In this document: positions 3,836 to 61,501 of the stretch, piece after piece
Layout: each line of letters opens with the position of its first letter
Numbering within the stretch: position 1 is the stretch's first letter
Assembly: GCF_003626595.1 (NCBI RefSeq)
Contig: NZ_RBAK01000001.1
Coordinates: 62,001-126,000 of the forward strand
Length of the DNA stretch: 64,000 nt
Direction of reading: 5' to 3'
DNA from: Micromonospora endolithica
GTDB taxonomy: Bacteria; Actinomycetota; Actinomycetes; Mycobacteriales; Micromonosporaceae
Notes under the pieces: generated by a model
Told to the model about the DNA's origin: nothing
What the model saw: only the letters and a program-made list of their open reading frames with translations
Database searches by the model: none
Program-made: the position numbers and the translations under genes

Positions 3836-5661
3836 GACGGTATTGCCACCAGCCATGTCAGCGCCTCCCGGATGTAGGGCGGCACCTGCAACGGATGGTT
3901 GCCGCTCATGGTGCGGTCGAGGAAGTCCTGCGCGAAGTCGCCTTTGCGCAGCTTGGTCTTCTTCATGGCGGCGATCAGGATGCGGGCTCGTTCGTCGGCA
4001 TCGGCAGCGGCGTCGACCTTGGCTTTGACCTTCCGGCCGGCTGTCGGGCGCTGCGCGGCCCAGGCGGGCCAGAAACCAGCGTTGCCCGCTTCGAGAAGTT
4101 CTGGTTCCAGCGTGCTGGGCGCGGCGAAAACGGTGGCGACGTCGGTGGCGTTGAGGCTTCCGATCAGGCGGTGGAGCTTTCCGAGGGGGTCATGGCGCTT
4201 GCCGGGGTCAGTGTCGGTGAGCACAACCACGCGCTCGGCGATGCGGCCCGACGGTGTCATGGTGAGCAGCATCCGCAGGTAGGGAGCGAAGTCCACACCG
4301 TCGATCGCGACGATTGTGGAGCCGACGAAGCGCGTCCAATCTCGTCCGCTGAACAGTGTTCTCGCCATCGCGGGCAGCAGGATAGCCTCGGCGATCCCTT
4401 CGACCAGGATGGTGCGGGGGCCGAACAGCATGCTGCTGCGGGTGGCGTCGAGATAGCGGTTCACGCGCGCTTCGTCGCTGGGCGGCAGGCCGAGCTCGGC
4501 GACGGCGACCGCCGACGCGGTGAACCTGACCGGCATGTTCCGGGCAGAGAGGTCGACGGGGCTAGACTCACCCGGGCTGACCGGGCGCCTTTGCAGCACC
4601 ACGATGTCCGCCACGTCAGTGTGTGCCGCCAAGAGCGGCGCGTGGGTGGTGACCACAACCTGGATGCGGCCCAGCCAACCGTTGCCGGGCGCCTGCTGAG
4701 AGTTATGTGCGGTACGGGAGAGGTAGTCCAGCAGGACCGCCTGCAGCTGTGGATGCAGGTGTGCCTCTGGTTCCTCGAGGAGCAGCAGCGTCAGGTCCGC
4801 CTGGGCCGCCGCATGCAGGTGGGTCAGTACGGTCGCGATGTAGGCGAGGTTCGCATAGCCCATCCCGGACTCGGCCAGCTCACGAGGCACCACCCCCGCG
4901 TCCGCCATGCGTATCCGCAGCCCTTTCACCAGACTGGCAAGGTCCGCCCGCCCGTAGCCAAGATCGGTGACCTGCTCATGTGCGCCACTGGTTAGCTCAG
5001 CAAGGGGTTCATTAACCATCTGCGCCGCCCTCTGAAGGACCGGATTAGCCTCAATGTTCCGCAATTGGTCACCGACCGCGGTCTGGAAACGCTCACGATC
5101 GTGGCGATCTCCACGCTCATCAACGAAGGTTTCGTCGTCTAACAGGCGCGCTATGATCGCCCGGATTCGGGACGTGCCGGCCGATCCCAGTTCGCGGATG
5201 GCGTCGCGCAACGGTGGCAGGTAGACGTGGCGTAGCCGGTTTCGCGCGCCGGGATCAGGGTCGTCGGCCACCGCGCCGCTGCCGGCCGTCCAACTCGTCC
5301 TGCCCCGCGCCTCTGCGGCACCGGGTGGCTCGTAGGTGAGCGCGTAGCACGCTTCGGCCTCACCAGACATGGCCGCCGATGACGTGAACGCGTCGCTATA
5401 GGGGGCGAGTTCCGCCAGGGTGCCTCGCAGCTTCATTCGGAGCGTGAAGCCGGCGTGTTCCCCGGTACGGCACACATCGTCAGGGTCAGCCCAGAGCGAA
5501 CGCCGGCCATCAAGAGGGTCCGTCACCAGCCGCAGTGCGTCCATTCCGCCCGACTTCCCCGCGCTGTTCTCCCCCAGCAACACGGTCACGCCGCGTCGTA
5601 ATGGAACTCGGGCCTTGGTAAACGCACGGAATCCGACTAGCTCCAACTCCGCGAGGTACAT
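3832..5661 (-). CDS. OLD-family ATPase/TOPRIM nuclease, GajA-like (Gabija)
   Basis: A 609-aa protein with an N-terminal ABC/SMC-like ATPase and a C-terminal TOPRIM domain. Walker A is GENSAGKS (30-37), Walker B LLLLEEPEAHLHP (~292-304) and the H-loop TTHAP (His340). The TOPRIM residues are Glu421 (ILVEG), Asp454 (VAIDG) and Asp483/Asp485 (LTDTDPGK), so the metal site looks intact. In the family, GajA is a nucleotide-sensing DNA nickase or nuclease that assembles with GajB. ATG at 5661 has a strong GGGAGGGGAAAG site. The gene is first in a two-gene operon with stop/start overlap to the helicase. A stand-alone class 2 OLD nuclease is the alternative reading. Confidence 0.82.
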   Translation of the reverse strand: MYLAELELVGFRAFTKARVPLRRGVTVLLGENSAGKSGGMDALRLVTDPLDGRRSLWADPDDVCRTGEHAGFTLRMKLRGTLAELAPYSDAFTSSAAMSGEAEACYALTYEPPGAAEARGRTSWTAGSGAVADDPDPGARNRLRHVYLPPLRDAIRELGSAGTSRIRAIIARLLDDETFVDERGDRHDRERFQTAVGDQLRNIEANPVLQRAAQMVNEPLAELTSGAHEQVTDLGYGRADLASLVKGLRIRMADAGVVPRELAESGMGYANLAYIATVLTHLHAAAQADLTLLLLEEPEAHLHPQLQAVLLDYLSRTAHNSQQAPGNGWLGRIQVVVTTHAPLLAAHTDVADIVVLQRRPVSPGESSPVDLSARNMPVRFTASAVAVAELGLPPSDEARVNRYLDATRSSMLFGPRTILVEGIAEAILLPAMARTLFSGRDWTRFVGSTIVAIDGVDFAPYLRMLLTMTPSGRIAERVVVLTDTDPGKRHDPLGKLHRLIGSLNATDVATVFAAPSTLEPELLEAGNAGFWPAWAAQRPTAGRKVKAKVDAAADADERARILIAAMKKTKLRKGDFAQDFLDRTMSGNHPLQVPPYIREALTWLVAIPS

Positions 5662-6075
5662 CGCTTTCCCCTCCCATCACACCTGCAGGCCGGGAGGATA
5701 GCCGTGACAGCGGGGTGGTTTCGACGTACTCGCCCGTGACCATTGGCCAAGATGTTCTGGCGGTCTCGCAATTGACGGCGGAGGACGGCCGACTGGGACT
5801 CACCGGAGTAGCCATGGACTGCGGCGAGTTGTTCATCAGGCGAGGCCTGTTGGTCACGGTGCTCAAAAATCGAGGCAGGCACGGTGGTCGTTTGGCGAGA
5901 AGACCCGATTGCTCCCGATCGTTGGAGCGGCCGGGAGTGCGGGGAGCGGTGGCCGGTGTCGTATCGCTCTGGCGGCTTGTCGGTTTCCGTCGATGACGGG
6001 TGCGACGTGGTGGGCCGGTCGACGGCCACCTGCACGGTGGCGGAGGTCGGTGTGGCTGCGAACGGTTTTGGTGTC
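5662..6075. other. Stretch without a convincing gene
   Basis: About 410 bp between the Gabija-like operon and the broken MFS gene. Short open frames exist on both strands but lack ribosome binding sites and convincing codon usage. The promoter of the leftward OLD/helicase operon should lie in its first ~100 bp. No repeat or hairpin stands out. Confidence 0.4.
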
Positions 6076-6190
6076 TCAGGTCTGGACGGTGAAAGGTCGT
6101 GGTGCGACGGTGTTCACTCGGGTGGTCATGCCGATGGCGGCGAGCGCGCAGCAGGTGGCGACCGCGGCGAGCAGCGGTGTGTATCCACTA

Positions 6191-7078
6191 AATGACGTCT
6201 CGTAACTCACTGAAGGCGTTGCCTCGCCCGGGCTGACGGCTCAGCCGGCGAGGATGATGTTGTGGAGATGGGCGATGCCGGAAGCAGCGTCGGTCAATGT
6301 GTGGGCGGCGCGACGGTAATCGCGCAGAATCTTGAAGCACTTCATCCTGGCCAGGGCGTGTTCCACCTGCGCTCGCACAGTGCGGTGTTGTTTGTTCAGG
6401 TCTGCCTTCCACTCGGGTAGCTCGCTGCCGTCGGCTGGCTTGCGGTACGGGATGATCACTTCAGGGTTGCCGCGGTAGGCGCCGTCGGCCATGACCGGCC
6501 GTCCGGCCAACTTCTGGTCGATGCCGCTGGTCCGGTAGACGATCGTGTCGTTGCGGTTGCCCGGTTGCGGGTCACCGAGGGCCACCACAAGGCGGGTGTG
6601 GGCGTCGATGGCGACCTGTAGGTTCGTTGAGTAGCGGTAGTTCTTGCTCGGGGCGGCCAGGCGGTGGTCCCGGGTCGGGATGAGGGTGCCGTCGACGATC
6701 GCGATCTGGTCGACCCGGCGCCGGCGAACCGGGGCCAAGGCCAGCAGCGGGCCGAGGGTGTCGATGACCCGGTGAGCGGCGGAGTGCGACACCCCGAACA
6801 ACAGGCCGATCTGGCGCATCGTCAGGTTCGTCCGCCAGTACGCGGCCACCAGCAACACCCGGTCGGCCAAGTCGAGAGCCCACTGCCGGCCCGGCCGACC
6901 ATCAGCGATCACGTCACCACCACGCTCGGCGACTAGCCGGACCAGCCGACGGAACTGGGCGGGCTGCAGCCCAGTGAACGGGAAGATCCACTCCGAGTGC
7001 CTCGCGGTGATCACCTGCACCCAGACATCCTCGATGATCGTCCTCAGCAGACAAACGCTGGGGTTACGAGACGTCCCT
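6191..7078 (-). mobile_element. IS5-family insertion sequence, 888 bp
   Basis: Imperfect 16-bp terminal inverted repeats, AATGACGTCTCGTAAC on the left and AGGGACGTCTCGTAAC on the right (reverse complement), bound one transposase gene. The flanks carry TA (6189-6190 and 7079-7080), read as a 2-bp target duplication. With one TA removed, the target is the palindrome CCACTAGTGG and the interrupted MFS frame is restored. TA duplications are known for some IS5-family subgroups. The subgroup cannot be fixed without a database comparison. Confidence 0.8.
6241..7020 (-). CDS. IS5-family transposase (DDE_Tnp_4 type)
   Basis: A 259-aa single-frame transposase. The N-terminal half contains an HTH-like segment (TMRQIGLLFGVSHSAAHRVI). 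The DDE catalytic core follows: first Asp in QIAIVDGTLIP, second Asp in VMADGAYRG, and a C-terminal Glu in VEHALARMK. These are the landmarks of the DDE_Tnp_4 domain of IS5-like elements. The frame runs from the left repeat side to ~58 bp from the right repeat and appears intact, so the element may still be active. Confidence 0.88.
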   Translation of the reverse strand: MQVITARHSEWIFPFTGLQPAQFRRLVRLVAERGGDVIADGRPGRQWALDLADRVLLVAAYWRTNLTMRQIGLLFGVSHSAAHRVIDTLGPLLALAPVRRRRVDQIAIVDGTLIPTRDHRLAAPSKNYRYSTNLQVAIDAHTRLVVALGDPQPGNRNDTIVYRTSGIDQKLAGRPVMADGAYRGNPEVIIPYRKPADGSELPEWKADLNKQHRTVRAQVEHALARMKCFKILRDYRRAAHTLTDAASGIAHLHNIILAG

Positions 7079-7804
7079 TAGTGGTGTGCAGGAGAACGGC
7101 GCCTGCAAGGGGTGCGGTGGCTTTGGCGATGGTGACGGGGGCGGCAAGGCGTCCGGCGACGCTCGCGTAGGCGGTGGTGCCGTAACGGTCCGCGAGCAGG
7201 GCTGGGGTGGCGAGGCTGGTGACGCCAAAGCCGAGCCTAAAGCCACCGTCGGTGATGACAGCGCCGGTGCGGCTGCCGGCGAGTAGGGGCATCGTGAGGA
7301 TGGCGGCGGCTTGGGTGGCGAAGACGGCGGCCACGATCGTGGTGACGCGCAGCTGTCGGCGGGCGGCGGTGAGGACGAGCCGGCCGGTGACCGACAGGAC
7401 GCCGAGCAGGCCTGTGGCGGTGGCGGGGTGGCTGCGGCTGATCAGGTAGCCGACGAGGTGGACGGTCATGGTGCTGGTTGCGGTGCCATGCGCGATGAAC
7501 GTTGCGGTCAGGATCCAGAATCGGGCATTGCGCATCGCGGAATTGACGATCGCGCGACGCTGGGCGTGGGCCGGCGGGTTGGAGTCAGTAGGTGCTGGTG
7601 CCGCTGATGTGCGCGGTCGGCGGATGGTGAGTGCCTGCAGCGGCACGGTGACCAGACCATGGATGACGGCGAGGGCGAGGAGCGCGCCGCGCCAGCCGAG
7701 GTGCGCGGCCAGGAGACCGGCCAGGGGAATGAAGATAGTGCTGGCGAAGCCGAGACTCTTGCACCCAGATGGCCGTCGTTGCCGTCTGACCCAGGCTGCG
7801 GTCT

Positions 7805-7838
7805 GCCTCGTACCCCCGCCCGCCGAGGGGTACGAGGC
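7805..7838 (-). terminator. 12-bp perfect stem, probable terminator of the copper operon
   Basis: GCCTCGTACCCC (7805-7816) and GGGGTACGAGGC (7827-7838) form a perfect 12-bp stem with a 10-nt loop. It lies ~70 bp downstream of the stop of the last leftward gene (7907). There is no U-tract, as is common for actinobacterial terminators. It could instead be a dyad operator. Confidence 0.55.
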
Positions 7839-7906
7839 TCGCAGCAGGTCTCAGTCACGCCTGATTTAGCCGACCGAGCCTCGGGAGGCGGCGTGCCTTC
7901 CTGCTG

Positions 7907-8188
7907 TCATGGCTGTGGGTTGCCTTTCCGGTCCGTCGTGTCGGCAGGGCCGGGTTCGGTGGGACGGCCGCGCAGCGTTGCTAGGCGCTGGCGGTACTCG
8001 TCGTCGCCAATTTCGCCGGCAGCATAGCGGCGGCGTAACACATCCTCCCCCTTTTCACCCTGCTCACTACGACCTGCGAAGGAACTGCGGCGGGCGAGCC
8101 AGATCACGCCAACGACCATGGCGGCCAGCACGGCCAGGGTTGCGAGGCCCATGAACGCCATCATCGGGCCCGTCCCGTTCCTACACAT
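7907..8188 (-). CDS. SHOCT-domain small membrane protein
   Basis: A 93-aa protein. One transmembrane helix (MAFMGLATLAVLAAMVVGVIW, ~10-30) is followed by a charged linker and a C-terminal SHOCT-like motif (DVLRRRYAAGEIGDDEYRQR), a short helical module often found at protein ends. ATG at 8188 has a GGAGG site six bases upstream. It is the last gene of the leftward copper operon, 116 bp after copA. Function is unknown; similar small SHOCT proteins often accompany actinobacterial copper ATPases. Confidence 0.75.
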   Translation of the reverse strand: MCRNGTGPMMAFMGLATLAVLAAMVVGVIWLARRSSFAGRSEQGEKGEDVLRRRYAAGEIGDDEYRQRLATLRGRPTEPGPADTTDRKGNPQP

Positions 8189-49797: not shown

Positions 49798-52227
49798 TCA
49801 GCGCTGCGTCGGCACTGGCCGAATCGTCCGAAGCGCCTCGATGCCCATCAGTCCCATGTTGGTGACCACGGCGTCCAGTTGAGGGTCGGGACCGGGCAAG
49901 CGGTTGTCGTAGGCGGTGGCGACCAGCGCACCGGTGTCGCCGTCGTAGAGCAGCCCGAAGGACCGGTCGAGCTGCCACTGGTGCTTCTTCGCGCTGGCGT
50001 ACCGCGCCAGCTCCGCGCGAGCGGCTGCGGGGGCGACGTAGGGCGGATGCGTCATCCACACGAGCACGAAGCTGTCGCCACGTCGTGTTCCGCCGGGCAT
50101 GGCGGCGCTGTGTGGACGCCCGTCCGCGCGGGTCTGGCCGGCGAGACGCTCACCCAGACCGGCCCACCGTCGTTGCGTAGGGGTGTCTCCGCCCAGAAGA
50201 GTGGCGGACATCGCCAGCCATCCCGGTTCTGCCCGAGCGGCGAGGTTGTCAACGAGCTGCAACAGGCCCCGATCCGCCATCAGGCGGGGCTTGTCAGCCG
50301 GGGTCCGGCGGTATCCGAGCCGGTGCATGTACCAGGCGTCGAGAGCGTCCGTCCGGCTCGTCAGGAGCTCCAGCTGCTGTTTGCGGTACTTGCGCCGGTC
50401 CCTGACCCGGGGCGCGCCAAGCTGTGGGAGCTCGCGATGTACGGCATCGGGATCGGGTTCGGCGTACAGCTTCGCGGCGAGGAAGTACAGATAGAAGTCG
50501 AGTTCGTCGACAGCATGGAACCGTCGTGTGATGTCCGGCTCGGTGCGCCGGCGTAGGTACAACAGCAACTCCGCGGGCCGGTCGATGAGTTCGCTGATGA
50601 TGCGCAGGTCATGCAGCGAGACAGTCCACGGCAGGGCACTGTCGGTCAGTAGGCCGGCGGCGACGAGGTCGCTCGTCACGGTGGCGATGCCGGACAGGTC
50701 CTCGAGACTGACCGCGAAGGCGTGCACTTCGCACACACCGCTGAGATCCAGCCAACTGTTGTCGCGCAGGCGTAGCCCGCCGTCGTCGAGTATGCGCCGG
50801 CGGAGCCGCTCGCTCTGGTTCCCGGCGTCGGTGACGATGCGACGGAGGTCCTGCCGCAGCCGCAGCGGATCCCCGGTCCGCGACCGCGCGCGCAGGGCCA
50901 CAGCCTTGCCTTCGATGATGATCGCGACGTCGTCGCAGATGAGCAGGCCGTCGCCCTCGACTACCTTGGTGTAGCGTGCCGGTTCGGTTTCGGCGCCTGT
51001 GGCCGGGACGAAATACTCCAGGCCCAGATGCGTGACGCACCCGGGCAGATGCGCCGCGATGAGATCAGCTGCTGCCTGCTCGACGTACTGGCCGCGGTGC
51101 TTGCTGTAGACGTCCCAGGCGCGCTGATCCAAACGCAGCGCCTCCTCCACCCGCTCGCGAATCGCCGGAATCAGCAGCCCGCCGTGCACGACGACGAAGC
51201 TACCGTCGGGATCTCGCAAGATTGGGCGTACCCGCAGCGGAGACCGGCCCTGAAAGAACTCCAGCGCCACCTCGGCCGACGGCCGCTGCACCAGCGGCGT
51301 TGTATACAGGTCGAGCACGGTGCGGACAGTCTCCACATCGACGCCGGCACTGCGGGCGATGACCTCTTCGGTGAAGGTCGAGCAGGCAGCGGGATTGTCC
51401 CAGACCTGAGCCCACAGGTGCCGAGCCTGCGCGACCACCTCCGGTGGCAGGTCACCAGCCGTCGCAGTGTCAGAGTCGGCCAACTGCCTGAACTCGCGCA
51501 ACGCACCGAAGCGGCCGTGCCAGGCCTCGTCGTGCAGGGCCTGCAAGGCCGAGAACACGTCCCTGATCTGCCTCACCGTGCAGCCCATGACCCTGCGGCA
51601 GGCGTCTTGCACGGCTGGCTGGTCGAACAGCGCCGTCAAGGTGTCCTCAACCATGTGGCCGTATGCGACGTTACGCACCGCCACCTCACGCAGCCGTGCG
51701 CCGAAGCTCAGGCGTCGCAACGGATCAGCGTCCAGCGCGGAACCGAACATGATCAGCATGGAGCCCGCGTCAAAGGCCTCCCTGGCGGCGATCTGAATGT
51801 CCTCGACAATCTGCTCCGGCCTCATCACCGGCTGGTCCCCGTCGCCTCCTGCGGAGGCAGCACGGCTACCGCGCGCCGCCATGATCAGCGCCACGAGCTC
51901 GATCACTGCGGCACTACCTTCGTGTTCGGTCTCTTGGAAGGTCTCCGGGTTAGCCATCGCGTTGTGAAGCCGGACGTACTCGAGAACGTCGAAGGCATCG
52001 CACTGCGCGGTCAGCCGCGCGATGCGCTGTACCGCATCAGTGAGCCGCGCACCGGCAAGCGCTGCTGCGGCGTCCAGATCGCCCAGCTCGGCGTACTGCC
52101 CGAACCGTTCAAGCCCCTCCAAGGCAAGTCGAATCGGGCGAGGAAGGTCGCGACCTGATGCCCCGACCTGCTTCGCGCGACGAAGCCTACGGCGCTTCTC
52201 CGCCTTCCTGCGCTTCACGCCTGACAC
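49798..52227 (-). CDS. Large unknown protein with PD-(D/E)XK/NERD-like nuclease motif, 809 aa
   Basis: GTG 52227 is taken because the coding-like sequence starts with a very basic segment (KRRKAEKRRRLRRAKQ) there; a GTG at 52218 is equally possible. A long helical N-terminal half carries no known motif. In the middle, YVEQAAADLIAAHL (Glu384) is followed by EGDGLLICDDVAIIIEGKA with Asp426, Glu439 and Lys441, the D...E-x-K pattern of restriction-like nucleases as in NERD proteins. The C-terminal ~300 residues are unassigned. It lies 164 bp downstream of the DUF2510 gene, same strand, possibly its own unit. Confidence 0.65.
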   Translation of the reverse strand: MSGVKRRKAEKRRRLRRAKQVGASGRDLPRPIRLALEGLERFGQYAELGDLDAAAALAGARLTDAVQRIARLTAQCDAFDVLEYVRLHNAMANPETFQETEHEGSAAVIELVALIMAARGSRAASAGGDGDQPVMRPEQIVEDIQIAAREAFDAGSMLIMFGSALDADPLRRLSFGARLREVAVRNVAYGHMVEDTLTALFDQPAVQDACRRVMGCTVRQIRDVFSALQALHDEAWHGRFGALREFRQLADSDTATAGDLPPEVVAQARHLWAQVWDNPAACSTFTEEVIARSAGVDVETVRTVLDLYTTPLVQRPSAEVALEFFQGRSPLRVRPILRDPDGSFVVVHGGLLIPAIRERVEEALRLDQRAWDVYSKHRGQYVEQAAADLIAAHLPGCVTHLGLEYFVPATGAETEPARYTKVVEGDGLLICDDVAIIIEGKAVALRARSRTGDPLRLRQDLRRIVTDAGNQSERLRRRILDDGGLRLRDNSWLDLSGVCEVHAFAVSLEDLSGIATVTSDLVAAGLLTDSALPWTVSLHDLRIISELIDRPAELLLYLRRRTEPDITRRFHAVDELDFYLYFLAAKLYAEPDPDAVHRELPQLGAPRVRDRRKYRKQQLELLTSRTDALDAWYMHRLGYRRTPADKPRLMADRGLLQLVDNLAARAEPGWLAMSATLLGGDTPTQRRWAGLGERLAGQTRADGRPHSAAMPGGTRRGDSFVLVWMTHPPYVAPAAARAELARYASAKKHQWQLDRSFGLLYDGDTGALVATAYDNRLPGPDPQLDAVVTNMGLMGIEALRTIRPVPTQR

Positions 52228-52391
52228 ACCAAGATCGTACGTCCGGTTGCGCTCGCTGCTGGCCCCCCGAGCCGGCAACGAGCCCTCAATTTGACGCCAC
52301 GAATACTCCTGGTGACCTTGCAGCACGGGATCCTGCCGGCCTGCCAACCGGCGTAGTCGATCCCACCCTGTCACACATTGGCGGACAGTCG

Positions 52392-54989
52392 TTACGGCCT
52401 GTGGATGTGCTCCGCCCATGCTGCGCCGTCCCACCAGCGCAGCTGCCCCGGCACCTGAGGGTCCGGGTACCAGCCGGCGCCCGGGGCGGCCGCGGCAGAA
52501 ACCTGCCGGCGGCCGAGCAGCCGCCCCAGCACGCCTGAGCGTCGGTCGGGAGCCGCAGTGTCGGCGGCCGACGGGGCCGCAGGTGGCGGTGCGGACGGTT
52601 GCCTCGATGGGTCTGGGGCAGGCTGCGCCACAGGAGCCACAGGAGCCGCAGGCGCCGGGGCTAGCCGTTGCTCCGGGGCGGGTCGGGGCGGTGCTGCCTG
52701 GCCGCTGGACGCCTGGAGCCTCCCGAGCGGAGCTGTCTGCGCGGGCGGCGAAGCCAACGCCGGTGGCCGCACCGAAGTGTTCGTCGACTCCGTGCCGCCG
52801 ACCCGTTCCGGGGTTCGCCCTGCGGTGATCGCGGTAGGACGGACGGTGTCGAGTCCGGCACGGACCTGCCTGACTACGGTCGCGTACCGGTCGAAGGCGA
52901 CGGTGCCGGGCCAGGTGAGCCGGGCAGCGCCGAACTCCTCTGGAGTCGGCGGCCGGTCGAGCGCCTCCTCGATCTGGACGAATCGTGGGGCCTCGGCGGC
53001 CAGCCTGCGGAGGTCCCACGAGAGGCGGTTGCCCTCAATGTCCTCAGCCGCGCGACTGTTGGGGACGTACCGGCCACCGAGGGCGGTGAAGACCCGGTTG
53101 CAGAACGCCGCCCGGCCATAGGGCATCAGCTGCACGCGAGCCTGCTCGACCGCTGCCCTTTCGCCGACGGCGGCGTAGAGCGCGGCGAGGTCTCCACCGA
53201 ACCACGAATTGGCGACCGGCGCCCCGAGGGTGGCGAACTGCTTGGCGGTAGGGAGCTTGCCGCGGCGGGTGACGGCAAGGTTCACCTGGCGGGCGAGCTC
53301 GCGCAGCGGCACCTCCCAGGCGCGGTTCAGCGCAGTCTCCAGGTTCTGGGCGGTCCATGCGCGGCGATGCGCGGTGACGATGTCGCGGAGGATCTCGAAC
53401 CCGTCGCGGCGAACGCCCCCGCCCATCGACATCGTCACGGTGACGCCGATGCCTGCGTCGAGGACGCGGCGGTCGGCCCACAGTTCCTTCGGGGGACCTA
53501 GCCGCCGCTGCGCGGCGCGCAGGTCACCGAACAGTTGCGGGTCGACCGGTGTGCCGGCAGCGGCGAGGGCCTTGACGTCGCGGCTGTAGTGCTCTGCCGC
53601 GCCGTCGATGTCAGTGCGGGAGTACGGGCCTTCGCAGTAGTACCAGCAGGTGAGCGCTATGTTGTTCCAGAAGGTCAGAGCGGGGCCGAACGCGGCGACC
53701 ATCTCCGCGTGTGGGAACAGCGTCGAGACGATGCGGTCGGGGTAGCGCGGAACGCACGCGCCGCCCCACAGGGCGTCGATGTCGACGAGCACGGCTGAGG
53801 GCAGAACCCGCTCGAAATCGGGGCGGGTGAACGGCACGTCCTCGCCGATGCCGAAGCCGCGGCCTGGCGCCAGGTCCGGTGGCGCCGGCATGCCGGACAC
53901 CTGCCGCGCGTGGATGGTGTCGAACGCGGCCCAGTAGCGGCGCAGGACGTCGAGGCGGCGCTGGATGGGGGAACGAATCTCGTCGGTGCCGAGGTAGCTG
54001 GCGAGGATCTTCGCGACCTCCTCGACCGGCAGGTTCTTTTCAGCGGCGGCCTGCTCGACCTTCGCTGAGGCCTGCACATACAGCCGCGGCTCAGGCAGAG
54101 CGGTGGTGATCTCCTCGCCCGCGGCTACCGCCTCGCCGAGGTAGTCCAGCAGCGCCAGCCAGTTGCCGCCGAAGTAGGCGGCGGCCGCTGGTTGCAGCGC
54201 CTTTGTCAGTACCGCGCGTGCGGTGGGCGCGTCCTTGTTCGCCTTCGCGTAGTACCGGCGAACCAGCGGCCGGAGCACCTCGGCGCGCCAGCGGCTCACT
54301 GTCTGCCGGCCGACGACCTGGCGGAGCGCGTCGAGCAGCGCTACCTTCGTCGCGGTCTGCTCCGCGGTCGGGAGCTGTGACCAGCCGTTGCCCGGACGCA
54401 TCCGGGTCAGCGCGGAGTGCACATGCTCGCTCGTGAGTCCGAGCGCGGTGTAGGAGACGTCGACCGCGGCCCAGGCGGCGTCTCGGGCGGCGGGCACGTG
54501 CGCGCCGGCGTCGGGGCCGCGCAGGATCAGTGGTGCGTAGAGGGTGTTGGCGAACGGGATAAGCAGCGCCCAGTTGGCCAGCGCGTCCGGGTTGCCGCTG
54601 AACTTGACGCGTACGCCGTCGGTCGCCGCGGTGTTCATCGCCCACCGCGGCTCGATGGCGTAGTACGCGGGGAGGTTGACCGTTCCCGGCTTGATCGGCG
54701 CGGACTCCGGCAGCCACCACGCGCCCGCGGCCTGTTGCGTGGCGAGGTCGAACCCCTCCTTGAGCGCCGCACGGGTCGAGGCGGGAACGTGCCGGAGCGT
54801 GAGTGCCCTGGTGGCTCCGGCGGCGGTCACCTGCACGGGGGGCTTGCCTGCGAACGCCGCAGCGGTGACCGCGGCCAGCAGCTCGTCCACCGCGGCGAAC
54901 CGCTTGCCGGCACCGGCCTCGTCCTCGACGGCCAGCCACTCCTCTGCATTTGTGGTCGCGGCCAGTCGGCGCCCCAGGCTGTCAGTCAC
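52392..54989 (-). CDS. Large unknown protein with C-terminal DUF2510, 865 aa
   Basis: GTG 54989 overlaps the helicase stop by eight bases. The first ~700 residues are a novel-looking mixed domain (segments LIPFANTLYAPLILRG, LVDIDALWGGACVPRYPD, TFWNNIALTCWYYCEG). They are followed by a Pro/Ala/Gln-rich linker (~710-830) and a C-terminal DUF2510 module GWYPDPQVPGQLRWWDG (~838-854). DUF2510 is a short Trp-rich module usually at the ends of actinobacterial membrane proteins; here no membrane helix is seen. Function is unknown. Its coupling to a nuclease-helicase suggests a joint, defence-like role. Confidence 0.7.
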   Translation of the reverse strand: MTDSLGRRLAATTNAEEWLAVEDEAGAGKRFAAVDELLAAVTAAAFAGKPPVQVTAAGATRALTLRHVPASTRAALKEGFDLATQQAAGAWWLPESAPIKPGTVNLPAYYAIEPRWAMNTAATDGVRVKFSGNPDALANWALLIPFANTLYAPLILRGPDAGAHVPAARDAAWAAVDVSYTALGLTSEHVHSALTRMRPGNGWSQLPTAEQTATKVALLDALRQVVGRQTVSRWRAEVLRPLVRRYYAKANKDAPTARAVLTKALQPAAAAYFGGNWLALLDYLGEAVAAGEEITTALPEPRLYVQASAKVEQAAAEKNLPVEEVAKILASYLGTDEIRSPIQRRLDVLRRYWAAFDTIHARQVSGMPAPPDLAPGRGFGIGEDVPFTRPDFERVLPSAVLVDIDALWGGACVPRYPDRIVSTLFPHAEMVAAFGPALTFWNNIALTCWYYCEGPYSRTDIDGAAEHYSRDVKALAAAGTPVDPQLFGDLRAAQRRLGPPKELWADRRVLDAGIGVTVTMSMGGGVRRDGFEILRDIVTAHRRAWTAQNLETALNRAWEVPLRELARQVNLAVTRRGKLPTAKQFATLGAPVANSWFGGDLAALYAAVGERAAVEQARVQLMPYGRAAFCNRVFTALGGRYVPNSRAAEDIEGNRLSWDLRRLAAEAPRFVQIEEALDRPPTPEEFGAARLTWPGTVAFDRYATVVRQVRAGLDTVRPTAITAGRTPERVGGTESTNTSVRPPALASPPAQTAPLGRLQASSGQAAPPRPAPEQRLAPAPAAPVAPVAQPAPDPSRQPSAPPPAAPSAADTAAPDRRSGVLGRLLGRRQVSAAAAPGAGWYPDPQVPGQLRWWDGAAWAEHIHRP

Positions 54990-57060
54990 GCAAGCCTCGC
55001 ATCACCTCGACGTACTGCTCGAACGTCACCGGGTTGGCGGTGCTGGCCGCGTAGGCGGCGTACCGGGCGGCCAGCGCCTCCCGTTCGCGTTCCGCGCGGC
55101 GGGTCTCGACCCGATCGGCGTCGTACACCACGCGGGTGGCGATCTCGCCGCGCTCGAACAGGACGAAGGCGTCCATCCGGCCGGCTTCGTCACCGCCGGT
55201 AGTTCCGGGCGACGGCGGCCGGGTGCCGCCCGGGCGGGCATCGAGCGTCGCGTCCCCGGTGACCGGGTCCATGTCGTTCTCGGCGTAAAGGGTGTCCAGG
55301 TGCTCGTTGAGGCCAAGCTCAGCGTGCAGCACGACGTCGAGGAATTGCTGCTCCGGGCCGACCCGGCCGATCAGCGCCGGGTGGAGCAGCACGCGGATCC
55401 CGCGGCCGATGAACTGGTAGAACTCGCTGAAGCTGCCGTACGGGCGCATCGGGACGACGACGCAGATTGGCGGGAAGTCGTAGCCCTGGCCGAGCATCTT
55501 CAACTGCACAATCGCGTCCAGGTCGCCGGCATCGGACTCGAACCGCTCGCGGACCCGCTTGATCTGGGTGTCGGTCATCGAGTGGTGCAACACGTCGCAG
55601 GCGATGCCGTGCTCGTTGGCGATGCGGGAGATCTGCTCGGCGTGCGCCTGCCCCATCGCCGCGAACAACACCCTCGGCTTGACCGGGAACAGCAGCTCCC
55701 GCTGAGCGTCCAGCGCGCTGGCCACCGCCCGCATGACCTGGCGGATGGGTTCGGTGGACCGTGCGGTGATACGTGACAGTTTGCGTTCGTCTCCGAGTAC
55801 GGCGAGCAGCGCGTCGCGGCCGACGATCTCCTCTCGGCGCCCGTCGGGCCACACCAGCTCGTAGGTGGTCACTGCGGTGTCGGGGACGAAAGGCAGCACC
55901 CGCAGGTTCTTGGCGTTGCCGTCTGCGATGGAGTCGATCAGCCGGTAGCGGTAGACGACGTCGCCGTCGATCGGTTTGCCGTCCAGGCGGGTGAAGCAGG
56001 CGCTCATCAGCAGCGACCGGGCGCCAGCAAAGTGCGCGAACAGTCGCTGGTAGGACTCCGCGGCGGCGATGTGCGCCTCGTCGACGACGATCATGTCCAC
56101 GTCGCCGGGGGCGAGCTTGGCCAGCAGGTCGTCGGGGTCGTCACCGGTGCCCAGGGAATGGAAGTTGGTCACGATCACGTCGGCGGCGAGCAACTGTTCT
56201 CGCGTGACGCGCCGGATGCCGCCGGTGTCCCGGTCGAGCACCCGCACCACTGGCGGGCGGCGGCCGGGGATGAGCGGGCCGCCGGGGAGCCCGTAGAGGG
56301 CGTTGCCAGGCGTCTGGTGGTCGAAGGCGCGATCGAATGCGCCCCGGATGACATTGCCCGGCGTGACGACCAACGCGCGGCGCCGGGTGAACGCTAGGGC
56401 CGCGACCACGCCGAGGACCGTTTTGCCGGCACCGACGCTCATCACGCAGGCGGCCTTCGTGCCACCGGAGCCGTAGTAGTTGCCGAGCGCGGCGAATGCT
56501 TGCTTCTGACACTCCCGCAGCGTGCGGAGGTCGACGGCGGATCGGACGCCGACGAAGTACCCGGAGGAGGTCGGCGTCGCAGCGCGTGGTGAGGGTGCCA
56601 ACGCCCACATCGGGTCGGGGGCCATGTCGGGCGTCTCCACATGGGGATCGGGAATGACGAGGAGGGCAAGCGCGGCGTCGCGAGTGAGTACCGCTTGAAG
56701 CTGGGCAATGCAGCGGGCGGCGTCGGTGCGGATCGCGTCGTAGGAGAACCGGACGACGGCACGGCCGGTGGCGGTCAGGTCGTTCTGCCGGAGCCGGTCG
56801 TACGTGAACGCCGCACGGGTGCCATGCACGGCGAAGCCGTCGAGCTCGACAGCGACAGCCAGCTCGTCGCCGACGATCTCGTAGTCCAAGCGATAGGTGT
56901 GTCCGTCGACGGTGACCTCGGCCTGCGGGCGGACGCGAGCGGCGATCGCCCGGGACGCGGCCGGCGTGAGTACCCACCGCAGGAACGCCCACTCGAGGAA
57001 CGAGTCGCTGGGCAGCACATCCGCCAGCGACGTGACCTTGCCCGCCTGGGTGGGAATCAT
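54982..57060 (-). CDS. DUF559-type nuclease fused to a DEAH-box SF2 helicase
   Basis: A 692-aa fusion from ATG 57060, which overlaps the upstream stop (ATGA). Residues ~20-120 resemble a DUF559/Vsr-like endonuclease: TYRLDYEI (Asp59), VAVELDGFAVHG (Glu72, Asp74), YDRLRQNDL and VRFSYDAIR. Then comes an SF2 helicase: Walker A SVGAGKT (208-214), VVDEAH (325-330), MSACFTR (motif III, SAC in place of the usual SAT) and YQFIGRGIR (motif VI, ~548-556). The domain order is like Type I/III restriction or DNA-repair motors but with the nuclease at the N-terminus. Likely a DNA-translocating nuclease. Confidence 0.8.
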   Translation of the reverse strand: MIPTQAGKVTSLADVLPSDSFLEWAFLRWVLTPAASRAIAARVRPQAEVTVDGHTYRLDYEIVGDELAVAVELDGFAVHGTRAAFTYDRLRQNDLTATGRAVVRFSYDAIRTDAARCIAQLQAVLTRDAALALLVIPDPHVETPDMAPDPMWALAPSPRAATPTSSGYFVGVRSAVDLRTLRECQKQAFAALGNYYGSGGTKAACVMSVGAGKTVLGVVAALAFTRRRALVVTPGNVIRGAFDRAFDHQTPGNALYGLPGGPLIPGRRPPVVRVLDRDTGGIRRVTREQLLAADVIVTNFHSLGTGDDPDDLLAKLAPGDVDMIVVDEAHIAAAESYQRLFAHFAGARSLLMSACFTRLDGKPIDGDVVYRYRLIDSIADGNAKNLRVLPFVPDTAVTTYELVWPDGRREEIVGRDALLAVLGDERKLSRITARSTEPIRQVMRAVASALDAQRELLFPVKPRVLFAAMGQAHAEQISRIANEHGIACDVLHHSMTDTQIKRVRERFESDAGDLDAIVQLKMLGQGYDFPPICVVVPMRPYGSFSEFYQFIGRGIRVLLHPALIGRVGPEQQFLDVVLHAELGLNEHLDTLYAENDMDPVTGDATLDARPGGTRPPSPGTTGGDEAGRMDAFVLFERGEIATRVVYDADRVETRRAEREREALAARYAAYAASTANPVTFEQYVEVMRGLRD

Positions 57061-57683
57061 CCGCCGTTGTCCTCCGCGGCGAACGCTACACACCGCTCCC
57101 GTGCGCGCCGGGCAGGTGGAGTGTCGCTGTTGTCGAACTGGTCGGCGAGCTCCAGCACCCGGGCTGCGTCGCCGAGCGCCCCCTCGGTGAGGTAGAGGTC
57201 AAGAAGTGTCCGGAACGCCGTGATGCTGACGAACCGCACCCCGCCGTCACGGTGCTCATAGGTGACCGCGCCGGGGCAAGCCTGGATCAGTTGGAGGTCT
57301 AGCCAGCACAGCCGTTCCAGCTCGACGAATGCCTGCGGCCCCTCGGCGCGACGCGACCACAGCAGCGAGATGACCTCCTGGATCGCGAAGTGGTAATCGG
57401 CGGGTTCACCGGGTAGCTCGAGAGCTTCGGCGAGGGTGCGCAGCACCCGGGCCGTTGTCGCCTTACGGGAATCATCGAGACGGTGAGCACCGGCAGGGGC
57501 CTGACTGGTGGTTCCGTTTGGCAGCGGCCAACTCAGCGACGGCGGCATGTCCGGCCAGCGGTTCACTGTCGGGCGGACGCTGCGCTGCCTGAGCTTGGAC
57601 ACGTCCAGCCCGGGCGGCGGGGAGTAGCGGACGCCTGGCATATCCGCGAAGCGCGGGAACCACAGCGGCACCTGCGAACTCAT
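57057..57683 (-). CDS. Hypothetical protein, 208 aa, first gene of nuclease-helicase operon
   Basis: Begins MSSQVPLWFPRFADMPGV. A Pro-rich N-terminal third leads to a helical domain with ATTARVLRTLAEALELPGEP, FAIQEVISLLWSRRAEG and FRTLLDLYLTEGALGDAARVLELADQF, resembling a few helical repeats. No catalytic motif is seen. Its stop overlaps the helicase start. It may be a specificity, sensor or adaptor subunit; this is inference from gene order only. Confidence 0.65.
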   Translation of the reverse strand: MSSQVPLWFPRFADMPGVRYSPPPGLDVSKLRQRSVRPTVNRWPDMPPSLSWPLPNGTTSQAPAGAHRLDDSRKATTARVLRTLAEALELPGEPADYHFAIQEVISLLWSRRAEGPQAFVELERLCWLDLQLIQACPGAVTYEHRDGGVRFVSITAFRTLLDLYLTEGALGDAARVLELADQFDNSDTPPARRARERCVAFAAEDNGG

Positions 57684-57967
57684 CGGACGCCCTTCCCCGC
57701 AACGGCGGCGGCGGGGCCGCGTTGCTGAATCAGCACGTAAAGTACCGACGGCCGGCTACGTTGTCACGCTGCGCCGCCCCGACGCACCCTCATCAATGAG
57801 TAGCCGGGCTGGCCGTCAGACTCCGTCTCGATCGCTGTCCGTCAGCCGACCGGCCGGATGCCGCCGATAGCACCCGAAAGGGTGACAGAGCTGCGTGAAC
57901 CAACCGCTCCTCCTACTCTGGACGTGAGAACCATGACGGGGGTAGATGCGCCGATCGTGGAGGTCCT

Positions 57968-59350
57968 ATGGCGACGAGGATGACGGCAGCCGCGGAACGG
58001 GGCACTCTTTCGTCGTGGGCCGCCGGGCAGCGGAAGCTACGGCCGCAGCGGTTCACCACCGCTACGGATGGGCTGCGGTTCGCGTTCTACGGCCGGATGT
58101 CCACCGTCGACTTCCAAGACCGGGCTTCGTCCTGCCGGTGGCAGCGCGACTACGCCGAAGACTTGATCGCCAGTCACGGCCGGATCGTGGTCGACTTCTT
58201 CGACGAGGGCACCTCTCGCCGGGTGGCCTGGTCGGACCGGCCGCAGGCGGCACGGCTGCTCGCCGCCGTGACAGACGCGGCACGCGGGTTCGACGCGATC
58301 GTCGTCGGTGAGTACGAGCGCGCCTTTCACGGCCAGCAGCTTGAACAGTTGACCCCTCTCCTCGTTCGGCACGGCGTGCAGCTGTGGCTGCCGGAAACCT
58401 ACGGGCCGGTGGACTTCGACAACCCCCGGCAGTTGGCGCTGCTGGACCTGCTGGGCGTGCACTCCCAGCGGGAGGTGTCCCGGGCCCGGCATCGCACAAC
58501 TGCAGCCATGCGCGCCCAAGCCGAGTTGCAGGGTCGACATCTCGGCGGTCGGCCACCCTATGGCTATCGCCTTGTGGACGCCGGCCCGCATCCGAACCGC
58601 GCTCACGCCGCTTGGGGACGCCGTCTGCATCGCCTAGAGCCCGACCCTGCCACCGCGCCCCCTGTGCGGTGGATTTTCGAGCAGCGGCTCGCGGGGCGCA
58701 GCGTGGCCAGCATCGCCCGCGCCCTCAACGACACCGGCATCCCCTGCCCGTCCGGCGCCGACCCGGCACGTAACCCGCACCGCAGCGGCCGATGCTGGAT
58801 ACTGACCACGGTCGCGGCGATCCTGGCCAATCCCCGATACACCGGCCGCCAGGTGTGGAACCGGCAGCGCACCGACCAGGACGACGTCGAGCCCGATGGA
58901 ACTCTCGCGCGGCACCGCGAGGTCCAGCGCTGGAACACCGCCCCGCACTGGGTCATCTCCCGACAGATCGCGCACCCACCGCTGGTCACCGAGGAGCAGT
59001 TCGTCGCGGCTCAGGCGATCCACACCGCGCCGACGCCAACCGACGGCGCCCATCGCCACTACCTGCTTGCCGGCCTCGTGTGCTGCGGCATCTGCGGCCG
59101 GATCATGGACTCCCATTGGGTCCACGGCCGACCAGGCTACCGCTGCCGCCACGGCCACACCAGCAGCCGCACCAAGACCTCACCGCGGCCGAAGACTCTG
59201 TACATCCGGGAAGACCACCTCCTCGACCGCATCCGCCACGAACGCGGACTTCACCGCCACCACCCCGCGCTGCGCAGCCCCGACTCAGTGAAGGTCGCTT
59301 CCTACCTGTGCACGGCTACAGGACGCCGACGAGCTGCGGTGCGGGTGTGA
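57968..59350 (+). CDS. Large serine recombinase
   Basis: A 460-aa site-specific recombinase. The resolvase domain shows FYGRMSTVDFQDRASSC with the nucleophile Ser45, IVVGEYERAF, and QREVSRARHRTTAAM before the recombinase domain (GGRPPYGYRLV; ILANPRYTGRQVWNRQR). A zinc-ribbon LVCCGICGRIMD...CRHG sits near 355-385. GGAGGTCCT precedes ATG 57968. The last ~30 residues overlap the convergent SNase gene and look atypical, so the 3' end may be altered. Such enzymes integrate phages and islands. Confidence 0.88.
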   Translation: MATRMTAAAERGTLSSWAAGQRKLRPQRFTTATDGLRFAFYGRMSTVDFQDRASSCRWQRDYAEDLIASHGRIVVDFFDEGTSRRVAWSDRPQAARLLAAVTDAARGFDAIVVGEYERAFHGQQLEQLTPLLVRHGVQLWLPETYGPVDFDNPRQLALLDLLGVHSQREVSRARHRTTAAMRAQAELQGRHLGGRPPYGYRLVDAGPHPNRAHAAWGRRLHRLEPDPATAPPVRWIFEQRLAGRSVASIARALNDTGIPCPSGADPARNPHRSGRCWILTTVAAILANPRYTGRQVWNRQRTDQDDVEPDGTLARHREVQRWNTAPHWVISRQIAHPPLVTEEQFVAAQAIHTAPTPTDGAHRHYLLAGLVCCGICGRIMDSHWVHGRPGYRCRHGHTSSRTKTSPRPKTLYIREDHLLDRIRHERGLHRHHPALRSPDSVKVASYLCTATGRRRAAVRV

Positions 59351-60461: not shown

Positions 60462-60833
60462 TCAGCGGGTTTTCCTTGTCGCTCGTTTGCGGGGCGGCGT
60501 CAACAGCTCGGCGATCGCGGTGATCGCTGATGGCACCAGACGGTAGTACGCCCAGACTCCGCGCTTCTCGCGCTCGATCAGGCCGGCCTCGGTGAGGATC
60601 CGTAGGTGGTGACTCACGGTTGGCTGGGACAGACCGAGCGGCGCGGTGAGGTCACTCACGGACGCCTCGCCTTCGGGGGCCGACTGGATCAGACTGAGCA
60701 GTCGCAGCCTGGCCGGATCAGCGAAGGCTTTGAGCACTCCCGCGAGCCGCTCGGCATCGGCACGTTTGATCGGCTCGCCAGCGAGGGGCGAGATCGCAGG
60801 CGTTGACGTTTTCGCGGTTCCCACGTCTTGCAT
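60462..60833 (-). CDS. ArsR-family regulator lacking cysteine
   Basis: A 123-aa winged-helix protein: GVLKAFADPARLRLLSLI, LTAPLGLSQPTVSHHLRILTEAGLIER, and a basic C-terminus. It contains no Cys at all, so it cannot use the thiol metal sites of ArsR/CmtR sensors. The His pair in SHHLR is part of the DNA-binding helix. It may sense a non-thiophilic ligand or act constitutively. A small palindrome abuts the start codon. No obvious target gene follows it. Confidence 0.85.
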   Translation of the reverse strand: MQDVGTAKTSTPAISPLAGEPIKRADAERLAGVLKAFADPARLRLLSLIQSAPEGEASVSDLTAPLGLSQPTVSHHLRILTEAGLIEREKRGVWAYYRLVPSAITAIAELLTPPRKRATRKTR

Positions 60834-60834
60834 C

Positions 60835-60845
60835 GTTGCAGCAAC
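60835..60845. promoter_or_regulatory. Short palindrome upstream of the Cys-free arsR gene
   Basis: GTTGCAGCAAC, two bases before the ATG (60833). A wider repeat CTTGCA/TGCAAG (60827-60832 and 60851-60856) surrounds it. It is a candidate autoregulatory site. Confidence 0.4.
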
Positions 60846-61501
60846 ACCCCTGCAAGGCTTGTGAAACGAGGGGCGAATCACGCTAACTTCACCGCGTAGG
60901 CCCTCCACGGCTGTTGCCGTCTTGTCGGTGTCTATATGGCGAGGACCCGGTCGACAGAGATCGGCGGAACCAGTAACCGCTGACTCCGAGGAAGGCTTGG
61001 TCAACTTCCATGGGCGACGAGTGGCGTTCGTGGTGGTCGCGGACGGTGACTGCAAGGTACCGCATCTGTTGTGGTCCGCTCGGGAACGGGTCACCGCCGC
61101 TCGTGCCGATGGTGGCATCGCGACAGTCTGAAAGCTGCCGACGACCCGGCCAGCGCCGGTGCCAAGGTCTCGCACGTGCAGCGGGGTCCGTTGGAGGTTT
61201 GGCGCCTACGACGGAACGACGAATTCGGTGTTGACGTAGCTTGGGCGGAGGCGGCCGATCCAGGCGAGGTCGACGATGAACGCGCAGCCAAACTGCTGCG
61301 GATGGCTCATCCTTTGAACCCGCTTCACGACGGTGGCGTCGACCTCGGGCCAACCTTGATGCGGGCAGTCAGGGCGCCCTCTTCGTCTGGTACCAAATGT
61401 TCCAAGGCTAAGCTGGGAGTGCGCCTGACCTGACTCGTGGCGCCGTTCCTGTTGGCACGTAGACGGGGCGGCAAGGGGCGTCGGCGCTCAGGGGAGAGTC
61501 T
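60846..61501. other. Stretch without a supported gene
   Basis: About 650 bp. Open frames on both strands have irregular codon use and no ribosome sites, suggesting decayed sequence. No repeats were noticed. Confidence 0.35.

What the first reader, a model, noticed from the sequence alone, without database searches (positions are those of the whole stretch)
49798..57683. Candidate undescribed defence operon: 208-aa protein, DUF559-SF2 helicase, 865-aa DUF2510 protein, 809-aa nuclease-like protein
The first three genes overlap by 4-8 bases and must be co-translated; the fourth lies 164 bp downstream on the same strand. The set contains one fused nuclease-helicase, one further nuclease-like motif and two large proteins without recognised domains, next to a large serine recombinase and an SNase. 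Known helicase-based systems (Type I RM, DISARM, BREX, Gabija, Zorya, Druantia) do not show this gene set as far as I can tell. The defence role is inference from guilt by association.
Basis: partly seen in the sequence, partly recalled or inferred. Interest (0 to 1): 0.85.

Follow-up and report, generated by a model that had tools for sequence, protein, structure and literature searches.

The report
Three-gene candidate phage-defence operon
Three of the four genes form a compact, horizontally spread unit, built around a DNA-cutting motor protein, that is probably an undescribed way for soil bacteria to destroy invading DNA; the fourth gene is an unrelated neighbour.

Summary
The four open frames exist as described. 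Three (A 208 aa; B nuclease-helicase, ~692 aa; C 865 aa) form a real unit: same order and strand in 19/19 genome loci (C in 18; one contig ends inside B), 6/6 further genomes and four Streptomyces plasmids, mostly Actinomycetota. A, B and C diverge in step. D (809 aa) is not part of it: absent from every such locus examined, found without the unit elsewhere. In B, nuclease and SF2 motifs are invariant. A (weakly TPR-like) and the core of C (no fold match) match no Pfam, NCBIfam or PADLOC family above cut-off; C ends in TerD in Streptomyces, in DUF2510 here. Neighbours include Gabija, Wadjet, pPIWI-RE, Mokosh-like and Lamassu-like genes, but against controls the excess is clear only for strong matches, and the window's own neighbours show none. 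One distant actinobacterium has A-C without B, followed by Mre11-like and Rad50-like genes, suggesting an A-C module with an exchangeable motor-nuclease. Best reading: a new DNA-targeting defence system without its own methyltransferase. Defence is inferred, not tested. Ten searches of the held library found no paper describing this gene set.

The parts
57057..57683 (-). A: 208-aa protein, predicted TPR-like helical adaptor, first gene of the unit
   Evidence: translation; homologue directly upstream of B in 19/19 loci; model pLDDT 90.5; TPR-like matches weak
54982..57060 (-). B: nuclease-SF2 helicase (692 aa from ATG 57060; frame open from GTG 57093)
   Evidence: start chosen because the conserved frame begins there and overlaps A by 4 bp
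56641..57003 (-). N-terminal DUF559/MTES_1575-type nuclease domain of B (about aa 20-140)
   Evidence: Pfam; D59, E72, D74, H79 invariant in 18 of 18 rows; the catalytic reading of these residues is recalled knowledge of the fold
55351..56568 (-). SF2 helicase core of B (about aa 165-570)
   Evidence: ResIII and Helicase_C; GxGKT, DEAH, SAC and QFxGRGxR motifs invariant
52392..54989 (-). C: 865-aa protein, conserved core about aa 1-710, no known fold found
   Evidence: homologue directly downstream of B in 18/19 loci, contig ends inside B in the other; model with a good core and some weak stretches; no fold match
52398..52478 (-). DUF2510 tail of C (aa 838-864); in Streptomyces relatives a TerD domain stands at this end
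52160..58642 (.). block 90% identical to Micromonospora sp. MW-13 (L013); includes C, B, A and the first half of the serine recombinase, excludes all but the first 70 bp or so of D
49798..52227 (-). D: 809-aa NERD/PD-(D/E)XK-like protein; neighbour, NOT part of the unit
   Evidence: absent from the A-B-C loci examined; found without B elsewhere; motif
57968..59350 (+). divergent large serine recombinase (460 aa); neighbour, shared only with MW-13 among the loci compared
   Evidence: family F7 in 2 loci only

Best explanation
A-B-C is a mobile three-gene anti-invader system. B is an ATP-driven DNA motor with a Vsr-like (DUF559) nuclease at its N-terminus; C, with A as helical adaptor, recognises the target and loads or licenses the motor, which then cuts or degrades the DNA. 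There is no methyltransferase in the unit, so self and non-self would be told apart by DNA structure, ends or foreign modification rather than by own methylation. Shown: gene content, order, co-divergence, conserved motifs, spread and neighbours. Inferred: DNA as target, ATP use, the division of labour between A, C and B, and the defence role itself.
For: Same order and strand in 19/19 (C 18/19) genome loci, 6/6 further genomes and four plasmid records. Overlaps: A-B in 18 of 19 loci, B-C in 17 of 18. Distance matrices of A, B, C over 16 loci correlate, Spearman 0.83-0.88, 0 of 1000 permutations as high; A and C diverge faster (mean distance 0.50, 0.49) than B (0.28). Full-length C in 6/6 Streptomyces-like genomes with B and 0/6 without. 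Nuclease and helicase motifs invariant. Sporadic: B in 6 of 392 genomes of one Streptomyces-like genus and 2 of 200 of the window's family (lower bounds). Neighbours: GajA 2e-210, JetC E 0, PprPIWI/PprDinG 5e-70/3e-115, Mokosh-like, HEC-06, GajB, LmuB; strong PADLOC matches (E <= 1e-30) in at least 9 of 91 neighbours against 1 of 108 controls, one-sided p 0.004. One genome has A-C followed by Mre11-like and Rad50-like genes, with no B found.
Against: At E <= 1e-10, with a lower bound for neighbours (10 of 91 identified) and an upper bound for controls (8 of 108), the excess is not significant (p 0.26); by locus at E <= 1e-30 it is 7/24 against 1/18, p 0.06. The E <= 1e-30 threshold was set after seeing the results, and the controls are subtelomeric Streptomyces-like regions only. 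The window's own neighbours, left out of that test, match PADLOC only through one HTH domain. A and C have no informative homology, so the recognition role is a guess. Many Streptomyces copies are subtelomeric, where accessory genes of all kinds collect.
Confidence: 0.57

Rival explanations
1. Replicon maintenance or transfer: a helicase operon of linear replicons, comparable to TtrA, that helps conjugation or telomere handling.
For: Subtelomeric and inward-facing in many Streptomyces-like replicons: 1.3 kb from the record start in SirexAA-E, 8.7 kb from both ends in G734, 97 kb from both ends in G755, 36 kb in G700; in 13 of 16 contigs over 20 kb the 5' side is nearer the contig end. Found on linear plasmid records.
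Against: The end-positioned helicases that fit the published TtrA description are a different family with HA domains (PMC3424136 and PMC8743542, passages) and B lacks them. The unit is rare, lies 1.23 Mb inside one chromosome (G795) and about 114 kb inside a 1.28-Mb contig in the window genome, and occurs in MAG contigs assigned to Myxococcales and Armatimonadetes (the latter is a 4.6-kb contig that may be wrongly binned).
Confidence: 0.15
2. Plasmid or conjugation exclusion rather than phage defence (a Wadjet-like anti-plasmid function).
For: Copies on large linear plasmids and near a Wadjet JetC gene; a motor-nuclease without a methyltransferase suits DNA-topology or end sensing (inference).
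Against: The other identified neighbours belong, by name, to anti-phage systems; nothing here separates the two targets.
Confidence: 0.15
3. A DNA repair operon (nuclease-helicase with a damage-recognition protein).
For: B is distantly RadD/XPB-like in its helicase part; an A-C variant stands beside Mre11/Rad50-like genes.
Against: Sporadic and horizontally spread (lower bounds); decayed copies occur (L028, L034, L035); housekeeping repair genes are usually conserved in a genus (general knowledge).
Confidence: 0.08
4. A four-gene system that includes D.
For: D follows C by 164 bp on the same strand and is itself nuclease-like.
Against: D in 0 of 19, 0 of 3 and 0 of 6 A-B-C loci, within the flanks held; the 90% block shared with MW-13 stops about 70 bp into D, where MW-13 has a transposase; D occurs on 10 plasmid records, none of which is one of the four with full-length B.
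Confidence: 0.03

Closest known systems
Type I restriction HsdR / EcoAI-type R subunit
   Same: N-terminal PD-(D/E)XK-type nuclease followed by an SF2 translocase in one chain; weak profile match NF046051, E 3e-8, over the helicase part
   Different: No methyltransferase or specificity subunit found in the unit; nuclease is DUF559/Vsr-like; score 33 against a cut-off of 550
ARMADA (YprA-type helicase with Vsr-type nuclease; PMC12458937, passages read)
   Same: Vsr-type nuclease domain fused to an SF2 helicase in a defence operon
   Different: ARMADA nuclease is C-terminal on a YprA-like helicase with BrxHII-like helicase and methyltransferase partners; B has the nuclease N-terminal, no DUF1998 match and no such partners
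Type IV / CglI-NgoAVII-like and SauUSI-like ATP-dependent restriction (partly recalled; helicase partners mentioned in PMC7159879, passages read)
   Same: DNA recognition plus SF2 motor plus nuclease
   Different: Those use PLD nucleases and B3 or DUF3427-type recognition (recalled); no such match in A, B or C
Mre11-Rad50 (SbcCD)
   Same: In G340 (L111) an A-C pair is followed by Mre11-like and Rad50-like genes in place of B
   Different: In the window and in the other loci read the motor-nuclease is B
TtrA, terminal helicase of Streptomyces linear replicons
   Same: SF2 helicase often near replicon ends and facing inward
   Different: Helicases at the TtrA position carry HA domains and form a separate family; B carries an N-terminal nuclease and has A and C as partners

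Membership tests
Type I restriction-modification | HsdM methyltransferase and HsdS specificity subunit in the operon | tested here: not met
   A and C match no methyltransferase or HsdS family in Pfam, PADLOC or NCBIfam at E <= 1; B matches R-subunit profiles only weakly
Type I restriction-modification | R subunit with nuclease plus SF2 translocase in one chain | tested here: met
   domain order in B and invariant motifs; architecture only, not family membership
TtrA | C-terminal helicase-associated (HA) domains | tested here: not met
   B has none; HA-domain helicases in L014 and L033 (near the end) and in L020 and L025 do. That the end-positioned ones are TtrA rests on position and on PMC3424136/PMC8743542 passages, not on a TtrA reference sequence
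ARMADA/DISARM/Druantia (YprA family) | YprA helicase with DUF1998, and methyltransferase partners | tested here: not met
   no DUF1998 or methyltransferase match in A, B or C
Gabija, Zorya, BREX, Mokosh, Wadjet, Lamassu and other PADLOC 2.0 systems | match to the system's signature proteins | tested here: not met
   A and C no match at E <= 1; B only generic helicase models, best 3e-10; systems described after PADLOC 2.0 were not tested by profile
SauUSI / NgoAVII-type ATP-dependent restriction | PLD nuclease | tested here: not met
   nuclease of B is of the DUF559/MTES_1575 type; no PLD match in A, B or C. The defining feature is recalled
Any family with a solved fold similar to C | structural similarity | tested here: inconclusive
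   Foldseek PDB best E 0.58, BFVD best E 0.1, VIA-align Z at most 5.0; model long and uneven, domains not searched singly
Candidate anti-phage system | protection against phage | not testable with these tools
   needs a challenge experiment

The most novel reading that the evidence does not exclude
A and C form a reusable recognition module that is paired with exchangeable DNA motor-nucleases: a Vsr-like nuclease-SF2 helicase in most hosts and an Mre11-Rad50-like pair in at least one other actinobacterial lineage. This would be a new class of methylation-independent DNA immunity with a previously unseen sensor fold.
Probability: 0.3. Interest if true: 0.82.

Novelty: new variant of a known kind. 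Interest (0 to 1): 0.63.

Why it matters
If true, it adds a DNA-targeting system with two undescribed protein families to the defences of antibiotic-producing actinomycetes. A sensor module that accepts either a helicase-nuclease or an Mre11-Rad50-like effector would show directly how defence systems swap their cutting engines, and it can be tested with a single operon in a laboratory Streptomyces.

Tried and rejected
Four-gene system: rejected because D is absent from the A-B-C loci examined. TtrA: considered because Streptomyces copies cluster near replicon ends; rejected as family membership because the HA-domain helicases at the ends are a separate, far more common family (386 plasmid records match, 278 over at least 80% of the query). 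A reading of L033 836-1603 as a second copy of B was dropped: it is that HA helicase. Phage origin: no record with 80% or more of B, and for C only a 4% match, among 50,697 phage records; pattern-based scans of IMG/VR found no relative of C and two partial helicase matches for B. The plasmid helicases 22-30% identical to B were read in three records: the match excludes the nuclease region, and they sit with replication and mobilisation genes, with recombinase and drug-resistance genes, or with methylase, HNH and mobilisation genes, without A or C; set aside. Internal duplication in C (aa about 238-300 against 561-622): above all shuffles in only 4 of 16 members, two of them closely related, so not claimed. 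Weak VIA matches of C aa 550-609 to chain F of RNA polymerase complexes (Z 2.5-3.1; sigma factor by recall) hint at a helix-turn-helix, too weak to use. A is a helical model: its best Z of 9.8 is within what the tool calls a common arrangement for helical bundles. The 9-of-91 against 1-of-108 comparison used a threshold chosen afterwards; the E <= 1e-10 comparison is not significant. The 134-against-7 family count is inflated because one protein matches many models of a gene (one protein filled the 25 rows, 23 of them GajA models). Only 30 of the 91 neighbours were scanned one by one, picked by me as likely (large or next to such), at E <= 1e-20 or 1e-10. Left out of the neighbour test: the window's own neighbours (scanned, no defence match), L016, L021 and L031 (short contigs), L035 (broken B, no C) and the two plasmid loci L084 and L085 read later; 117 neighbours were reduced to 91 by removing related proteins. 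The 6 further genomes are not all independent of the first 19: L056 shares 14.7 kb at 95% with L019, and L058 and L060 share long stretches with L034. Genome G453 has A and the first part of B on one short contig (with one stop inside) and the rest of B and C on another; it is not in the counts. (DNA flank search in relatives) was uninformative because the query hits a multi-copy family. Papers seen only as listings, such as PMC3710099 and PMC7824862, which hold TerD and helicase terms, were not opened.
Full report
Observation. The four open frames are on the minus strand at the stated places. A is 208 aa, B 692 aa from the likely start ATG 57060 (703 from GTG 57093), C 865 aa and D 809 aa. 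A and B overlap by 4 bp, B and C by 8 bp, and D begins 164 bp after C. Pfam places ResIII, Helicase_C and DUF559 in B and a DUF2510 tail in C; A and D have no domain above cut-off.

What the unit is. A search with B gave 19 genome loci at 59-93% identity: Micromonospora, Streptomyces, actinobacterial MAGs, and MAG contigs assigned to Armatimonadetes (4.6 kb, possibly wrongly binned) and Myxococcales. A lies directly upstream of B in 19 of 19, and C directly downstream in 18 of 19; in L031 the contig ends inside B, and in L016 inside C. Six more genomes of one genus have A-B-C (6 of 6). They are not all independent of the first 19. Four Streptomyces plasmid records carry A, B and C, with C in two pieces in three of them, so decay occurs. 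Nonomuraea L035 has A and a broken B without C. With the nearest start codons, A and B overlap by 1-11 bp in 18 of 19 loci (2-bp gap in L016), and B and C by 4-11 bp in 17 of 18 (L028 has a broken B frame).

D is not a member. It was absent from the 19 genome loci, the 3 plasmid loci and the 6 further genomes, within the flanks held. The block shared with Micromonospora sp. MW-13 (90% identity, window 52160-58642) ends about 70 bp into D, where MW-13 has a transposase. D relatives were found in 9 other genomes of 396 searched, three of them with E below 1e-100, and on 10 plasmid records, 8 of them over at least 80% of D; none is one of the four records with full-length B. Its family keeps a NERD-like motif.

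Unit behaviour. Distances among 16 loci correlate between A, B and C (Spearman 0.83-0.88; 0 of 1000 permutations as high), and A and C diverge faster than B (0.50 and 0.49 against 0.28). In 12 Streptomyces-like genomes searched with C, full-length C was present in 6 of 6 with B and 0 of 6 without; the other hits began at profile position 710 or later, that is, in the TerD tail. B is rare: 6 of 392 genomes of that genus, 2 of 200 of the window's family (probably Micromonosporaceae), 1 of 396 Actinomycetota, the own genome. These are lower bounds, because only the top 2 or 5 first-look candidates per genome were scored.

Proteins. In 18 B sequences the residues D59, E72, D74 and H79 of the DUF559-like domain and the SF2 motifs are invariant. 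The catalytic reading is recalled knowledge of the fold. A folds with mean pLDDT 90.5 into helices that resemble TPR proteins only weakly (best Foldseek E 0.038; VIA Z 9.8, rmsd 3.0 over 124 residues). C has mean pLDDT 72.9 with most of the core at 75-95 and a disordered tail; no match in PDB or BFVD. C carries a TerD domain at its end in Streptomyces (PDB TerD chains, E 3e-7) and DUF2510 here.

Surroundings. Flanks vary between loci. I compared 91 deduplicated neighbours from 24 loci with 108 proteins from 18 control regions of six Streptomyces-like chromosomes without B. Identified neighbours include GajA (L059), GajB (L033), JetC and an LmuB-like protein (L018), PprPIWI and PprDinG (L025), Mokosh-like proteins (L017, L057), HEC-06 (L034) and an AriA/OLD-like protein (L024) (30 of the 91, picked by me, were scanned singly). 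With strong matches (E <= 1e-30) at least 9 of 91 neighbours (8 identified plus at least one REase_MTase_IIG protein) against 1 of 108 controls match (one-sided p 0.004); at E <= 1e-10 the bounds are 10 of 91 against 8 of 108 (p 0.26); by locus 7 of 24 against 1 of 18 (p 0.06). The strict threshold was chosen afterwards. The support for a defence island is therefore moderate. The window's own neighbours were not in this test; the six flanking proteins scanned gave no defence match beyond an HTH domain.

Position. Many copies are subtelomeric: SirexAA-E 1.3 kb, G734 8.7 kb from both ends, G755 97 kb from both ends, G700 36 kb; G795 is 1.23 Mb inside. In 13 of 16 contigs over 20 kb the 5' side is nearer the contig end. 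The helicase that fits TtrA (described in PMC8743542 and PMC3424136, passages read) is a separate HA-domain family at the ends of linear plasmids. The window copy lies about 114-120 kb from the start of a 1.28-Mb contig.

A variant without B. Among 386 Actinomycetota genomes searched with C, one other full-length C was found, in G340 (E 6e-172). There A (11 of 11 invariant residues kept) and C (50 of 55 kept) stand together near a contig end, followed on the same strand by a 367-aa Mre11/SbcD-like protein (E 2e-10) and a 932-aa Rad50-like protein (E 1e-5), then a frame on the other strand that looks by eye like a tyrosine integrase. No B was found in that genome, which is 97% complete, with all 4 candidates scored. 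This is a single case, and the gap between C and the Mre11-like gene is 226 bp, so a chance neighbour is possible. If not, A-C is a recognition module with an exchangeable motor-nuclease.

Mechanism. I think it most likely that C, with A as adaptor, recognises foreign DNA or a DNA structure and loads the B motor, which cuts or degrades the DNA. No methyltransferase was found in the unit, so own methylation is an unlikely self marker. The Mre11-Rad50 variant favours sensing of ends or branched DNA. Recognition and loading are inference.

Prior work. Ten literature searches and passages from seven papers (PMC8743542, PMC7159879, PMC3424136, PMC10482375, PMC13092281, PMC12839542, PMC12458937) gave no description of this gene set. 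Most subscription papers and all supplementary tables were out of reach, other listed papers were not opened, and PADLOC 2.0 dates from 2023.

Verdict. An undescribed, horizontally mobile A-B-C unit is well supported. Defence is the best explanation at about 0.57. D should be removed from the claim.

Noticed in passing
L111 (G340:C31:56000-67325): A-C without B, followed by Mre11-like and Rad50-like genes and an integrase-like frame; a possible effector swap.
   Followed up: partly
L087 (Gordonia sp. KTR9 pGKT2, 5569-8028): A homologue of D sits between a helicase-related gene and DUF1156 and DUF499 genes, which looks like a multi-gene defence operon.
   Followed up: no
window 58642-59275 and L013 7633-8474: The shared block breaks inside the serine recombinase gene, and pieces of that gene match in a different order in MW-13, suggesting recombination within it.
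   Followed up: no
L015:16322-17977: A phage-type integrase is fused to an Mrr_N domain downstream of C.
   Followed up: no
L019:8390-14856, also L022, L023, L027, L028: A large protein family (F4; STAND/NACHT-like by Pfam in L019, the only one tested) lies downstream of the operon in five Streptomyces loci; in four (L019, L023, L027, L028) it is followed by a partner of unknown family.
   Followed up: partly
L026:7250-8848: A protein joining a Peptidase_S24 and a DUF3427 domain stands about 0.6 kb upstream of A in the Myxococcales MAG.
   Followed up: no
L034:17345-17908: An antisense 'hypothetical protein' is annotated over a part of C that appears broken by a frame change in three related plasmids.
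   Followed up: no
window 60462-61175: ArsR-type HTH protein with an N-terminal extension of about 150 aa beside an SNase gene.
   Followed up: no
NZ_LT559118.1 (H5): An 11.85-Mb record labelled a Nonomuraea plasmid is the size of a chromosome; probably mislabelled.
   Followed up: no
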